Source: an uncultured Ruminococcus sp. (GTDB lineage: Bacteria; Bacillota; Clostridia; Oscillospirales; Ruminococcaceae). Taken from it: 64,000 bases of DNA. This document shows positions 12,887-34,221 of this stretch, piece by piece (the first letter of the stretch is position 1; each line of letters begins with the position of its first letter). The DNA is taken from NCBI GenBank assembly GCA_947566125.1, contig CANOIR010000004.1, forward strand, positions 1 to 64,000. The letters are read 5' to 3'. The position numbers and the translations under genes are program-made. The notes beneath the pieces are model-generated. The model did not search any database. It was not told the origin of the DNA and worked only from the letters and a program-made list of their open reading frames with translations.

Positions 12887-12902
12887 AAACAAAAAATATT
12901 TC

Positions 12903-13014
12903 AGAGTAGATAACGGTGCGTTAAGTGATCGGCAGACGGGGAGTTGTTGCCGGAACGAAAAGGTTTTTACACCTTGCGGTATCGTTGTCGCATCCCGCTG
13001 AATGTTCATAAGAA
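12903..13014 (+). promoter_or_regulatory. Tetrahydrofolate (THF) riboswitch
   Basis: Matches the known folT-type THF aptamer: AGAGTAGATAACGGTGCGTTAAGTG opening in two segments (GAGTAGATAACG, GTGCGTTAAGTG), the GGCAGACGGGGAGTTGTTGCC arm, CGAAAAGG...ACCTTGCGGTATCG, and the conserved closing CATCCCGCTGAATGTTC. It lies immediately upstream of a folate ECF transporter gene, the usual context. Downstream, AGCCTTTC (13020-13027) can pair with GAAAGGCT (13085-13092) over the start codon, which suggests translational control. Confidence 0.92.
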
Positions 13015-29955: not shown

Positions 29956-30083
29956 AATCCGGAACATAGGTGTGCAGGTTTACTGCGGCACACAAAACGA
30001 TCCGCTTAATGCTGCTCGGTCTCCCGCCTGACATGGTTCACGGTGCTTTATTGCACAGGACCCGCACACCTATATTCCGGAGA
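29956..30083 (-). ncRNA. ffs: Small signal recognition particle RNA
   Basis: On the minus strand the ends pair (TCCGGAATATAGGTGTGC with GCACACCTATGTTCCGGA) around a long hairpin. The apical part shows the helix 8 signature CCATGTCAGG-CGG-GAGA-CCG-AGCAGC, with GTGAACC beside it. The tetraloop is GAGA, a GNRA variant of the usual GGAA. ffs directly upstream of dnaX is the standard Firmicute location. A TTTTTT run after the closing stem suggests that the stem also ends transcription. Exact ends are approximate. Confidence 0.92.
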
Positions 30084-30239: not shown

Positions 30240-31616
30240 TCAGGTGCAAAGTCTTTCAACAATAGTTGCATCAAGAATCAAATCTCTCAGTTTTACGCCG
30301 TCAAACTTAAAATCAAGTGTTTCATCAATAGTAAGACCTTCAGCTATTGTATCTTCATCATAAATCCATATATAAAAGCTGTTGTTATGACCTTCGATTC
30401 CATAATATTCACCGTTGTATTCAAATCCAACGTTCCAGCCTCTTTCAAGATAAAACTTAAATTCACCAAGTGTTTCAAATTTATAGTCATCAGGATTGTA
30501 ACTAGGATCATCCGGCATATCTTTAAACTTCATCTTTTTTTCAACTCCTTCGGTTTTATAATAGTTTTTAAATTCAGGAATGTTTCCATCCCAATAGTTA
30601 ATGGGTGATTGTGGGTTAGGGTGCCCGTTGCTCCAATCAATATGATGGTCATGAGGATTAGAGTGATATTTTGGTATGTCGTGGTCTGTTAGATGTCGTT
30701 CCCATTCAGCCCGTCCATCTTTTCCATATTTCATTATTATTGTATATCCGCCTTTTTTTGTTTTTTTAATCCATTCTTTTGTGGTGTTTGGCTTGCCCAA
30801 AAATTTTTCATCATTTGGCTTTTTTGGTTTCCAATCTCCACCAAATGCACTGCCTCCACCTTTACATATATATCCTATTTTTGTAATTATATCACAAATA
30901 GACGTTTCTGTCAACATACTATGAATATGTTTTATATATTTCGCCGGCTTGATATCGTCATTCATATGACGCCATGAACTCATTTCATAGTCAATATAAA
31001 TCAAATTTCCTTCCATTTCGGGAAATGGCTCACTGTAACAAATTACATATTCCGGTTCGATTCGCTTTAAAAGTTCTCTGTAACCATTTAAAAAAAGTTC
31101 CTTTTGGTCTGCATGGTTGCCGTGTTCATGAAACATATATGTTGAAACTGCTACGATAGAACCTTTCTCGATTCCGGAGAAGCAGAAATCAAAGCTCCCT
31201 TTTGTTCCCCAATTAACAGTTGGTACAACACGCAAACTTTGTTGTGCCATATATGCACCGCACCATTGATTACAGAATGTATTGTAAAGCTGTAAAGCGT
31301 ATGGCATTTCTGTGTACATACTGAAATCTGGTGTCAGTACACCACGGTATGAACGTAACGATTCGATAAATGGTTCAGGGTCCTTCCAAATTTTTTCAAA
31401 ATTGTAATCATACAGAAAGAAATGAACCATTCGGTCACCGTGCAAACCTTGATCTTGTTTTACTCTATTAAATCCAAGTAATCTGAGATTATTAAGTTCA
31501 TCTTGTGAAAAATTGGGCTTTGGAATAATTGGTATACCGAAGTTATCCAATTTATCATTGAATTGGTTTCTTAAAAATAGCGGATTAGTTCTATATTTAA
31601 AATTTTCTAATGTCAT
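30240..31616 (-). CDS. DUF4417 protein with extra C-terminal domains
   Basis: 458 residues. Residues about 25-235 match the DUF4417 pattern (GVLTPDFSMYTEMPYALQLYN, GTKGSFDFCFSGIEKGSIVAVSTYM, ELLKRIEPEYVICYS), a family of unknown function found in phage-like and accessory settings. A Gly-rich hinge (GGGSAFGGDWKPKKP) leads to a His/Asn-rich segment (GRAEWERHLTDHDIPKYHSNPHDHHIDWSN) that resembles domains at the C-termini of polymorphic-toxin-like proteins, then a small alpha/beta module ending IDETLDFKFDGVKLRDLI. It stands alone between SRP RNA and a tRNA-Pro gene; AGGAGG sits close to the ATG. An accessory gene is inferred. Confidence 0.65.
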   Translation of the reverse strand: MTLENFKYRTNPLFLRNQFNDKLDNFGIPIIPKPNFSQDELNNLRLLGFNRVKQDQGLHGDRMVHFFLYDYNFEKIWKDPEPFIESLRSYRGVLTPDFSMYTEMPYALQLYNTFCNQWCGAYMAQQSLRVVPTVNWGTKGSFDFCFSGIEKGSIVAVSTYMFHEHGNHADQKELFLNGYRELLKRIEPEYVICYSEPFPEMEGNLIYIDYEMSSWRHMNDDIKPAKYIKHIHSMLTETSICDIITKIGYICKGGGSAFGGDWKPKKPNDEKFLGKPNTTKEWIKKTKKGGYTIIMKYGKDGRAEWERHLTDHDIPKYHSNPHDHHIDWSNGHPNPQSPINYWDGNIPEFKNYYKTEGVEKKMKFKDMPDDPSYNPDDYKFETLGEFKFYLERGWNVGFEYNGEYYGIEGHNNSFYIWIYDEDTIAEGLTIDETLDFKFDGVKLRDLILDATIVERLCT

Positions 31617-31760: not shown

Positions 31761-31837
31761 TGGTCGAGGTGACAAGATTCGAACTTGCGGCCCCTACGTC
31801 CCGAACGTAGTGCTCTACCAAACTGAGCCACACCTCG
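31761..31837 (-). tRNA. tRNA-Pro (CGG)
   Basis: 77-nt cloverleaf on the minus strand, acceptor CGAGGTG/CACCTCG, discriminator A, encoded CCA, anticodon CGG in loop TTCGGGA. Own promoter and terminator. Confidence 0.95.
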
Positions 31838-31996: not shown

Positions 31997-32011
31997 CTTT
32001 AATATTATGAT

Positions 32012-32087
32012 TGGCTCCCCCAGTTGGACTCGAACCAACGACAACTCGGTTAACAGCCGAGTGCTCTACCGACTGAGCTATGGAGGA
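32012..32087 (-). tRNA. tRNA-Asn (GTT)
   Basis: 76-nt cloverleaf on the minus strand, acceptor TCCTCCA/TGGGGGA (one G-T pair), discriminator G, encoded CCA, anticodon GTT in loop CTGTTAACC. Confidence 0.95.
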
Positions 32088-32111
32088 ATATAGCTTCTTA
32101 TCACAATATAT

Positions 32112-32140
32112 ATTATAGCATATCAAAAAAGCTTTGTCAA
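32112..32140 (-). promoter_or_regulatory. Consensus sigma-A promoter of tRNA-Asn
   Basis: Minus strand perfect TTGACA, 17-base spacer, TATAAT. Confidence 0.9.
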
Positions 32141-32277
32141 GCCTTTTTTTCAATTTTTTCAAAAAAATTTTTTGAGCGAGCAACTCTTGATTTTTATCAA
32201 TTTAGAATCTGTATTCATAAGGAAGATGTACGGCTTATACTATGAATACAGATCCTTATATTAGCATGACATGAAAA

Positions 32278-34221
32278 TTATAGTCCGGCTGCGTGTTTTA
32301 CATAAAGTGATAGAACTTCTATAGCATCTGATATATTTATTTGATAATCGTTTACTATATCCATTGCAATTTCCTGAGAACGACAAAGCCTTTGAGGTAA
32401 CAATGCACTTCTTCCCGCATATACACTTAAAATATCTATAGCATCTGTAATTGTCAAATCGCCATCTCCATCACTGTCACCATATATTATATCATAGTCA
32501 TCATATATATATTCAGGATAGCTTATATTTTCACCGCTTTCTTCAAGTGATGCAAATATGCTCATAGCTGCTCTTTTGCATACAATAGGACCTGCATTTT
32601 CTGAAAGAGCTTTTTCGCCTATAGAAACAGCCTCTGAAATTATTTCATTATAATCTTCAACATTGCGTGCGGCTTCAAGTGCAGTGTTCAGCATAATAGG
32701 AACGTATTCATCTTTGTTTGTTCTTTCGGCAAATGCCTTGATAGGAACATTTCCCATACTGCCGTGTGAACCTTCACACATTGATGTATCCAACCATTCT
32801 CCGTCTGTATATATATAACTTTCATATGGATTTGCATTGCATTCAAGTGTAAATGTGCTTGTTAATGATGTATTCTCTTCAATAGGCAGATATACTAAAC
32901 GGTTTTTGTCCTTGCAAGACATTGTAAGGACAAGTGAGAATTGGTCGCCCTTCATAAGTTCTGCCGGATTTTCAAGCGGAACTGTATAATATCCGCTATT
33001 TGAAATAGTTCCGCTTGCTGAACCGATAATATGACCATCTGTTGGGTCTTGTGTATTTTCATTAAGCTTATATACAGAAATATTGTAAGTTGTATTCACA
33101 GGATTTCCTGATGGCATATAAAATGAGGCATCTGTTATAATGCTGTCATAATCTGCGGTGAATATATTTGCCGCAGCATCGAAGCTATATGATGTCACAT
33201 AACCTACACCGTCATATTCATAAACATCATCATGTTCCGATGCCTTTTCGACAATATATTTAAAAAATGAACCCATAGACGGATCTTCATATGATATCCA
33301 GAAGTAACCATCATCAAAAATATTATCGCCATAGCTGTTTTTTACAAGCCATGCACCGTCTTTGCTTGGCTGACTGCTTGGAGCAAAGTTCTCTTTGCTA
33401 TAGTCATCGTCCCAGCCTACTATGAGTGCAGCATGGTTTGCGTCTTGCTTATAAGATTTGCCTTTTGCATAGTAAGCATATGTTGTACCGTTGTCGTAAT
33501 AAAGTGAACGCTGACTATAATATGCCATTGATACTGCACCGCTTTCCATCAGCCAATTTTTAATTTTATTTATAGATGCTGTATCTGATGCATTTGCTAT
33601 ACTTTCACAAGTTTTAAGTCTGTATTGACCGCCGTATCTTGAATATTCAGAGTAATCAGAATTCCAATTTTGATATTGGCAAAGACTCTCTCTTTCAAAT
33701 CCCATTCCGGTAGCCAGTCCGGCAGAAGCCAATAAACTATTGCCGCCGTCTGCACCTTTTTTAGGTGTGTTTAAATAATCACCATAAAGCGGATCGAATG
33801 GGTCGGACTGTGATTTATATAGAAAATATCCAAGCTGAGCTTCTGACAGGTCAAGTTTAGATGCGTCATCTTCAAAGCCTTGTTTTAAGATATTTGATTC
33901 GCACGCACCCAAAACAGCAAATATATGACACATTCCTTCAGGACCTTGATTGCGTACCGGAGTTACAGCGTTTTCATCTCTAAGGTCATAGTGACTGGGC
34001 AGGTTTTGAACTTGTATTATAGATTGATCGTCTGATTTATTTTCATACTGTTTATAATATTCTTCTTCGTATGGCATATGAACATATCCTCCGCCGTTTC
34101 CGGGAACGAAACTATTTTCTTCGGCATAGGAATAATTTATATTTGTATTATATGCAAGTATGAACGCAAAAGATGTCAAGGCAGTAAAAATGGATATTGC
34201 TTTTTTAAAATTTGACTTCAT
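32278..34221 (-). CDS. Secreted papain-family (C1A) peptidase with lectin-like domain and dockerin
   Basis: 647 residues with a signal peptide (to about residue 33). C1A catalytic set is complete: oxyanion Gln92 and Cys98 in RNQGPEGMCHIFA, His263 in ANHAALIVGWDDDY, Asn295 in WLVKNSYG. A beta-rich domain of about 160 residues follows, as in the clostridial C1A lectin-like architecture. A helical linker then leads to a dockerin (GDSDGDGDLTITDAIDILSVY and a second repeat, MDIVNDYQINISDAIEVLSLY, whose loop departs from DxDxDG). A cellulosomal protease is inferred. GGAGG ribosome site; monocistronic. Confidence 0.88.
   Translation of the reverse strand: MKSNFKKAISIFTALTSFAFILAYNTNINYSYAEENSFVPGNGGGYVHMPYEEEYYKQYENKSDDQSIIQVQNLPSHYDLRDENAVTPVRNQGPEGMCHIFAVLGACESNILKQGFEDDASKLDLSEAQLGYFLYKSQSDPFDPLYGDYLNTPKKGADGGNSLLASAGLATGMGFERESLCQYQNWNSDYSEYSRYGGQYRLKTCESIANASDTASINKIKNWLMESGAVSMAYYSQRSLYYDNGTTYAYYAKGKSYKQDANHAALIVGWDDDYSKENFAPSSQPSKDGAWLVKNSYGDNIFDDGYFWISYEDPSMGSFFKYIVEKASEHDDVYEYDGVGYVTSYSFDAAANIFTADYDSIITDASFYMPSGNPVNTTYNISVYKLNENTQDPTDGHIIGSASGTISNSGYYTVPLENPAELMKGDQFSLVLTMSCKDKNRLVYLPIEENTSLTSTFTLECNANPYESYIYTDGEWLDTSMCEGSHGSMGNVPIKAFAERTNKDEYVPIMLNTALEAARNVEDYNEIISEAVSIGEKALSENAGPIVCKRAAMSIFASLEESGENISYPEYIYDDYDIIYGDSDGDGDLTITDAIDILSVYAGRSALLPQRLCRSQEIAMDIVNDYQINISDAIEVLSLYVKHAAGL

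What the first reader, a model, noticed from the sequence alone, without database searches (positions are those of the whole stretch)
30240..31616. Isolated DUF4417 fusion protein between the SRP RNA and tRNA genes
Seen: a DUF4417 N-part, a Gly-rich hinge, a His/Asn-rich stretch (TDHDIPKYHSNPHDHHIDW) and a further small domain, in a single gene flanked by RNA genes on both sides. Known: DUF4417 is of unknown function and occurs in mobile and phage-like settings. Inference: the hinge plus variable C-terminal layout recalls polymorphic effectors or phage accessory proteins, and sites beside tRNA/SRP RNA genes are common entry points.
Basis: partly seen in the sequence, partly recalled or inferred. 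Interest (0 to 1): 0.5.

Follow-up and report, generated by a model that had tools for sequence, protein, structure and literature searches.

The report
Toxin gene hiding its own antidote
A gut bacterium's gene of unknown function appears to be a bacterial weapon, a toxin behind a phage-linked carrier, whose antidote is the tail of the same gene and can probably also be made alone from a hidden second start.

Summary
The 458-aa gene at 30240-31616 (-) is real. It has three parts: DUF4417, a ~75-aa domain with the motif PHDHxIxW, and a C-terminal domain. The middle domain also ends two RHS-repeat proteins in other Clostridia; in both, the next gene is a homologue of our C-terminal domain. Stand-alone copies, tandem cassettes and orphans occur too. 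So the middle part is most likely a polymorphic-toxin domain and the C-terminus its immunity protein, fused in one frame. The junction keeps a Met codon in 54 of 56 fusion rows. A strong Shine-Dalgarno precedes it in 47 of 48 non-redundant ones, in all three codon frames, against 67 of 408 other in-frame ATGs and 0 of 13 hinge Mets. A free 97-aa immunity protein is therefore probably made from a gene within the gene. Elsewhere (phages, plasmids, chromosomes) DUF4417 is often followed by a Gly-rich-start gene, some of them known toxin types (EndoU, ADP-ribosyltransferase), so it looks like an undescribed toxin carrier. The gene was not found at this site in 15 of 15 genus relatives (two stretches short). 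Target, delivery and toxicity are untested. Precedent for the nested antidote: Rpn. Verdict: new variant of a known kind.

The parts
30240..31616 (-). DUF4417-toxin-immunity fusion gene, 458 aa
30993..31541 (-). DUF4417 domain (PF14386), predicted TIM-barrel-like fold
   Evidence: fold: AlphaFold2 and VIA-align, best Z 8.7 to tRNA-guanine transglycosylase, tied with other barrels
30837..30863 (-). Gly-rich hinge KGGGSAFGG, likely relic of the Gly-rich start of a once separate toxin gene (inference)
   Evidence: hinge motif matched in 43 of 52 fusion rows (rows listed); similar MGGRG/MGxGG starts in genes after unfused DUF4417; mostly disordered in model
30567..30824 (-). toxin domain (E-R-H...H...PHDHxIxW...NY), shared with RHS proteins
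30545..30550 (-). predicted internal Shine-Dalgarno AAGGAG
   Evidence: sequence; statistics
30531..30533 (-). predicted internal start codon ATG (Met362)
30240..30533 (-). nested immunity gene, 97 aa, same frame as the fusion
29969..30067 (-). flank: small SRP RNA
31761..31837 (-). flank: tRNA-Pro(cgg), not found in the stretches beside dnaX/SRP taken from 15 relatives (two of them short)

Best explanation
The gene is a polymorphic toxin-immunity unit collapsed into one reading frame. DUF4417 (residues 1 to about 220) is the carrier. A disordered Gly-rich hinge leads to a ~75-aa toxin domain, most likely a nuclease. After a second disordered linker comes the immunity domain. From one mRNA the cell probably makes two products: the long carrier-toxin-immunity protein from the first ATG, and free 97-aa immunity protein from Met362, which has its own Shine-Dalgarno. 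The free protein keeps the toxin silent, as RpnS does with RpnL. SHOWN by computation: domain boundaries, toxin domain shared with RHS proteins, immunity homologue directly behind the RHS toxins, conserved internal SD plus Met, stand-alone and orphan immunity copies, patchy distribution. INFERRED: that the domain is toxic, that it is a nuclease, that the internal start is used, that DUF4417 carries or aims the toxin. UNDECIDED: whether the unit kills neighbours or acts inside the cell. I lean slightly to an intracellular, prophage-derived addiction or phage-exclusion role over export, because an exported protein would carry its own antidote unless cut.
For: Toxin: a search made with the middle domain alone hits the last ~70 residues of two RHS proteins, L078 (1721-aa open frame, Rhs_assc_core E 2.3e-16) and L084 (1089 aa, Rhs_assc_core E 1.9e-19). 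Immunity: the next gene in both matches an HMM of our C-terminal domain (E 5.1e-17 and 2.1e-16; also L033 5.8e-21, L115 3.5e-17). Of 74 toxin-domain ORFs kept, 67 carry the immunity domain fused, 7 have it within 300 bases, none lacks it; 29 ORFs, short fragments included, carry immunity alone. Internal start: junction Met in 54 of 56 fusion rows; SD <= -5 kcal/mol in 47 of 48 non-redundant rows, in 67 of 408 other in-frame ATGs and in 26 of 26 gene starts; SD core in the three codon frames 18/16/13 times; 0 of 13 hinge Mets have it. In the RHS cases the toxin's stop codon overlaps the same kind of SD. Linkers 223-259 and 351-370 are disordered in the model. Immunity is the most divergent part: mean identity DUF4417 67%, toxin 58%, immunity 38%, 33 sequences. 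Decay: G014 (L022) keeps an open immunity frame beside a toxin with stops; G010 (L021) keeps two immunity copies, one with a stub of the toxin's end.
Against: No toxicity, protein or ribosome data exist here. Codon choice alone is weak: resampling synonymous codons for the same residues gives SD <= -5 in 28.9 of 48 on average, and only 5 rows are individually below 0.05. The paralogue L004 has only a weak SD (-2.7), though it has a separate immunity gene behind it; L041 lacks the Met. Toxin and immunity distances correlate less (Spearman 0.46) than DUF4417 and immunity (0.69), against tight toxin-immunity co-evolution. Only 2 RHS carriers were found. Of the 7 'separate' cases, two (L068, L093) look like fusions broken by a stop, and in L116 the immunity match is weak (E 1.4e-4). 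No known toxin family matches the middle domain: Pfam and NCBIfam none, PDB sequences none. Rows are related by descent, so tests across rows are not independent.
Confidence: 0.78

Rival explanations
1. Classical interbacterial polymorphic toxin: the fusion is exported or released by lysis or on a phage particle, the linker is cut, the toxin enters a competitor and free immunity protects kin.
For: Same toxin domain at the end of RHS proteins; cassette arrays and orphan immunity; DUF4417 loci in phages beside head or tail genes (annotated; by eye) and before ADP-ribosyltransferase genes; Foldseek match of the toxin model to a phage minor capsid protein (prob 1.00, E 8.4e-3, rank 2).
Against: No LXG/WXG, RHS or MuF family match in the window protein (signal peptides were not tested); the antidote travels with the toxin; the place of DUF4417 in phages is not constant.
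Confidence: 0.4
2. Intracellular toxin-antitoxin or phage-exclusion gene like Rpn: the long protein is toxic when a phage or stress removes or outcompetes the short one.
For: Gene-within-gene antitoxin precedent (PMC10327210, abstract and introduction read); XRE- and ImmA/IrrE-like genes, judged by eye, beside some DUF4417 loci (L024, L026, L115).
Against: No PADLOC model matches; the toxin domain also sits in RHS proteins, which are built for delivery; no such regulator adjoins the window gene.
Confidence: 0.45
3. The C-terminal domain is a structural or chaperone part of one enzyme and the internal ATG/SD is incidental.
For: The fused form is the rule in this lineage (67 of 74).
Against: The domain is a separate gene behind RHS toxins and elsewhere, 29 ORFs with immunity alone, conserved Met plus SD in three frames, disordered linker.
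Confidence: 0.08
4. Decaying remnant of a prophage with no present function.
For: Decay of related loci (L020, L021, L022, L029); patchy occurrence (17 of 148 family genomes, own included).
Against: This copy is intact with start SD and internal SD; 31 of 55 loci are complete by the criteria.
Confidence: 0.07

Closest known systems
Polymorphic toxin systems (Zhang et al. 2012, PMC3482391; passages read)
   Same: C-terminal toxin shared by unrelated N-terminal parts, immunity gene on the 3' side, stand-alone cassettes and immunity copies
   Different: carrier is DUF4417; immunity is in the same frame as the toxin with a predicted internal start. The 12 passages shown (of 25 places) describe fusions among immunity domains and occasional SUKH-toxin fusions, not this arrangement; the whole text was not read
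Rpn intragenic toxin-antitoxin systems (PMC10327210; abstract and introduction read)
   Same: C-terminal antidote translated separately from inside the toxin gene
   Different: Rpn is a PD-(D/E)XK nuclease; no such domain was matched here, the antidote here has stand-alone homologues, and the toxin domain also sits on RHS proteins
MuF phage polymorphic toxins (PMC5576092; passages read)
   Same: phage-linked carrier with exchangeable toxin domains and small downstream immunity ORFs
   Different: no MuF match here; DUF4417 genes are not regularly behind portal genes in the phages viewed
PT7/PIM7 of Bacillus cereus (8owu; DNase according to a review, PMC9990079, passages read)
   Same: small polymorphic toxin; weak structural match Z 3.7, 58 residues, rmsd 6.3, 16% identity; which partner chain B is was not checked
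   Different: no sequence-profile match; the match is too weak to mean common descent
ParB-CTPase-DUF4417 fusions (PMC12704722; passages read)
   Same: DUF4417 in prophage proteins
   Different: there DUF4417 is joined to a ParB fold and has no assigned role; here it leads a toxin

Membership tests
DUF4417 (PF14386) | profile score over the curated cut-off | tested here: met
   170.2 bits against 28.9
Polymorphic toxin system | toxin domain shared by different carriers | tested here: met
   DUF4417 fusions and two RHS proteins
Polymorphic toxin system | immunity gene directly 3' of the toxin | tested here: met
   RHS cases 2 of 2; of 74 toxin ORFs 67 fused, 7 within 300 bases (two of these broken fusions, one weak), 0 without
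Polymorphic toxin system | stand-alone toxin/immunity cassettes or orphan immunity | tested here: met
   arrays in L040, L068, L079, L083, L093, L094; copies behind L004, L019, L059, L062, L089 and others
Polymorphic toxin system | N-terminal trafficking domain for export | tested here: inconclusive
   only DUF4417 found, no known export role
Polymorphic toxin system | toxic activity blocked by cognate immunity | not testable with these tools
   needs expression
RHS protein | RHS/YD repeats and core in the window protein | tested here: not met
   no NCBIfam match up to E 1
MuF toxin | MuF domain | tested here: not met
   for the whole protein Pfam lists only DUF4417 and sub-threshold DUF6641 up to E 10
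Rpn-type intragenic toxin-antitoxin | in-frame internal start giving the C-terminal antidote | tested here: inconclusive
   sequence signal strong; product not shown
Rpn-type intragenic toxin-antitoxin | Rpn PD-(D/E)XK N-terminal domain | tested here: not met
   absent in Pfam scan
PT7 DNase toxin | homology to PT7 | tested here: inconclusive
   structure Z 3.7, no sequence match
Known anti-phage defence protein (PADLOC) | profile match | tested here: not met
   0 families up to E 0.01

The most novel reading that the evidence does not exclude
DUF4417 is the leader of an undescribed, phage-linked class of polymorphic toxins, in its basic form three adjoining genes (DUF4417, Gly-rich-start toxin, immunity). 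In one Oscillospirales branch the three collapsed into a single frame that keeps the immunity gene as a gene within the gene, so that one message makes both weapon and antidote.
Probability: 0.6. Interest if true: 0.75.

Novelty: new variant of a known kind. Interest (0 to 1): 0.62.

Why it matters
It gives a testable role to DUF4417, a domain matched in 481 of 50,697 phage records and, in the rows listed, mostly annotated 'nuclease' or hypothetical. It names a small toxin/immunity pair that the Pfam and NCBIfam scans made here did not recognise. It extends the gene-within-gene antidote known from Rpn to polymorphic toxins, where annotation hides the immunity protein inside the toxin's frame.

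Tried and rejected
Entry into the SRP/tRNA site by site-specific recombination: no attachment-like direct repeats around the gene; the region is rearranged as well, so a clean insertion cannot be claimed.

Known phage relatives with the whole architecture: none among the annotated phages (no match; 479 records match, none over 80% of the query) or plasmids (5 records, DUF4417 part only). The RHS-linked immunity protein also had no match in the phage records, nor an RHS toxin end in the plasmids. IMG/VR scans gave 2, 4 and 1 loci, overlapping: four distinct contigs.

Fold of DUF4417: five tRNA-guanine transglycosylase entries top the list (Z 8.2 to 8.7), but an unrelated barrel also has Z 8.2, so I claim only a TIM-barrel-like fold. 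PDB Foldseek with the whole model gave nothing at E <= 0.001. Toxin model against PDB: OspA single-layer sheets lead at Z 5.4, taken as chance. Toxin model against viral models: the best row is a Mimivirus 'putative hemagglutinin' (E 8.1e-4, prob 1.00), then the phage minor capsid protein used as a lead, then two more phage proteins at prob 1.00 (a 'glycosyltransferase' and a 'phage protein'); aligned ranges in the targets are not given. No PDB sequence relatives of toxin or DUF4417; for the immunity profile two Piwi-like chains at E 0.03, taken as chance.

HNH nuclease label: tempting from the His-rich motif, but no HNH model matched, so it is not used.

Papers: DUF4417 in 3 papers, PF14386 in 1; the passages I read do not call it a toxin carrier, and the third paper (PMC5478533) was seen only in the listing. 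'Intragenic antitoxin' gave 5 papers. Three searches for an internally translated immunity protein gave 0, 0 and 1, the one seen only in the listing; a wider bacteriocin search listed 10 of 49, a polymorphic-toxin search 25 of 481, a phage-toxin search 4 and a PT7 search 4, listings only except the papers cited. The library holds open-licence papers only.

Full report
What is there. The ORF at 30240-31616 on the minus strand encodes 458 aa from an ATG. Pfam gives DUF4417 for residues 26-208 and nothing reliable for the rest; NCBIfam gives nothing. PHROGs gives phage DUF4417 families and, weakly, two phage families of ~75 aa for residues 381-454 (phrog_3711, E 2e-5). SRP RNA lies downstream and tRNA-Pro upstream.

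Relatives. The same genome has a 64% paralogue on contig C7, followed by a separate gene 70% identical to our C-terminal domain. Among 60 genomes (own included), 10 have a match. G020 has the same architecture followed by two more stand-alone copies of the C-terminal domain. G012 keeps toxin and C-terminal domain with the DUF4417 front lost; G010 keeps two C-terminal copies, one with a toxin stub; G014 keeps an open C-terminal frame beside a toxin with stops. By the length and motif criteria, 31 of the 55 are complete DUF4417-hinge-PHDHxIxW-C-terminal proteins in one frame, near-duplicates included; the others are broken, cut off, or carry another front.

The key test. Two of the 55 (L078, L084) carry the middle domain not on DUF4417 but at the very end of RHS-repeat proteins (Rhs_assc_core E 2.3e-16 for L078, and 1.9e-19 for L084). 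The gene right behind each encodes a 78-aa homologue of our C-terminal domain (HMM E 5.1e-17 and 2.1e-16), and these match phrog_3711 at 2e-13 and 1e-11. RHS proteins with exchangeable ends and an immunity gene behind are textbook polymorphic toxins (recalled; general gene order in PMC3482391, passages). The search used the toxin only, and the HMM was built from fused proteins only, so finding the partner behind the RHS genes is an independent result. In L115, from another family of the class, DUF4417, a Gly-rich-start toxin and the immunity homologue are in three separate frames. Over the loci held, with 30 duplicate or overlapping loci dropped by name in the script (some near-duplicates remain), 74 toxin ORFs divide into 67 with fused immunity, 7 with it within 300 bases, and none without. 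Of the 7, two (L068, L093) look like fusions broken by a stop and one (L116) has a weak immunity match. 29 ORFs, short fragments included, are immunity alone. Arrays of toxin-immunity cassettes occur (L040, L068, L079, L083, L093, L094).

The hidden start. In fusions the residues between toxin and immunity vary, yet a Met is kept in 54 of 56 rows (L041 has none, the L068 frame ends at a stop before the junction). Upstream sits a Shine-Dalgarno. With redundancy cut at 90% identity, 47 of 48 rows reach -5 kcal/mol or better (mean -8.5), against 67 of 408 other in-frame ATGs and 26 of 26 true starts. The exception is the paralogue L004 (-2.7). The SD core falls in the three codon frames 18, 16 and 13 times, so the DNA motif, not a peptide motif, is kept. 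I took the best Met where there were several; 35 of the 52 rows listed have one Met only, and all 35 pass. As a contrast, 13 of 43 hinges also contain a Met, where a separate toxin gene could have started, and 0 of 13 have an SD of -5. Told against: given the encoded residues, random synonymous codons would reach -5 in 28.9 of 48 and only 5 rows stand out singly, so the residues themselves seem shaped by the motif and codon choice adds little; related rows are not independent. In the RHS loci the toxin's stop codon overlaps the SD of the immunity gene. In the window the motif is AAGGAG, 11 bases before ATG, with no stop. The second linker (351-370), which holds Met362, is disordered in the model.

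DUF4417 as carrier. After dedup, 58 DUF4417 ORFs without a fused toxin have 400 or more bases behind them; 28 are followed closely by a Met with 3 or more Gly in 14 residues (MGGRG..., MGKGG...), against 222 of 4627 first-Met windows at large. The comparison is rough: the test may try several Mets per locus and the background one; the 58 include many broken fusions, which lower the figure, 5 of the 28 lead to the PHDH toxin itself, and one locus is counted twice. The following genes include EndoU (PF14436, E 4.4e-15), ADP-ribosyltransferases in Mycobacterium phage ArcherNM and Gordonia phage Remus (PF03496, E 7.1e-19 and 4.1e-21) and DUF6883. Others read to me as JAB-like or metalloprotease-like (L122, L136, L142), but Pfam gave no match for them, nor for L118, L119, L124 and L134. 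Some DUF4417 genes in fecal phage records (L138-L140) are followed by genes of another kind. The hinge of the fusion resembles the Gly-rich starts, so the likely history is DUF4417 gene + toxin gene + immunity gene, fused stepwise (inference).

The site. All 15 other genomes of the genus keep dnaX beside an SRP RNA; none of the 15 stretches shows toxin or immunity or a tRNA-Pro, though two stretches are short (L162, 2656 bases; L166, 687). In five of the nearest, the homologue of the window's C1-type peptidase gene lies behind SRP in the opposite orientation. So this gene is likely a lineage-specific arrival with rearrangement. DUF4417 itself is patchy: 17 of 148 genomes of the family, 9 of 398 of the phylum sample; the toxin profile hits 4 of 391 of the class sample, own genome included each time. 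In IMG/VR a close but broken copy of the paralogue lies behind what reads as a phage endolysin (L029; by eye).

Structure. Full-length AlphaFold2 has mean pLDDT 77. DUF4417 resembles TIM barrels, tRNA-guanine transglycosylase first at Z 8.7 but tied with others. The toxin alone (pLDDT 81) is a short helix and five strands. PDB matches are weak; PT7/PIM7 chain B stands at rank 17, Z 3.7. Among viral models the toxin matches a Mimivirus 'putative hemagglutinin' first (E 8.1e-4) and a phage minor capsid protein second (prob 1.00, E 8.4e-3), the latter a lead to MuF-like carriers.

Judgement. That this is a toxin-immunity pair on a DUF4417 carrier I hold at about 0.85, the internal start at about 0.85, DUF4417 as a general toxin carrier at about 0.7, nuclease activity at about 0.5, and delivery is open.

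Noticed in passing
L024 3176-7003: XRE-like regulator, ImmA/IrrE-like gene, DUF4417, EndoU toxin, small gene, DUF4417 fragment, second Gly-rich-start gene and small gene in a row (only EndoU and DUF4417 by profile, the rest by eye): a DUF4417 toxin island with regulators.
   Followed up: partly
L115 513-3180: DUF4417, toxin and immunity in three separate frames, followed by another small gene and a second, different toxin-like cassette (by eye).
   Followed up: partly
window 12900-13002: THF riboswitch (RF01831), E 2.4e-18.
   Followed up: no
window 32011-34106: Segment with tRNA-Asn and a C1-type peptidase gene (ending in dockerin-like repeats, by eye) is inverted against five of the nearest relatives.
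   Followed up: partly
L134 2438-3490, L141 2318-3359: In mycobacteriophages Tourach and LeBron the DUF4417 gene and its small follower sit inside a tRNA gene cluster.
   Followed up: no
L161 287-509: One relative's SRP RNA is called as the large bacterial type, the others as small.
   Followed up: no
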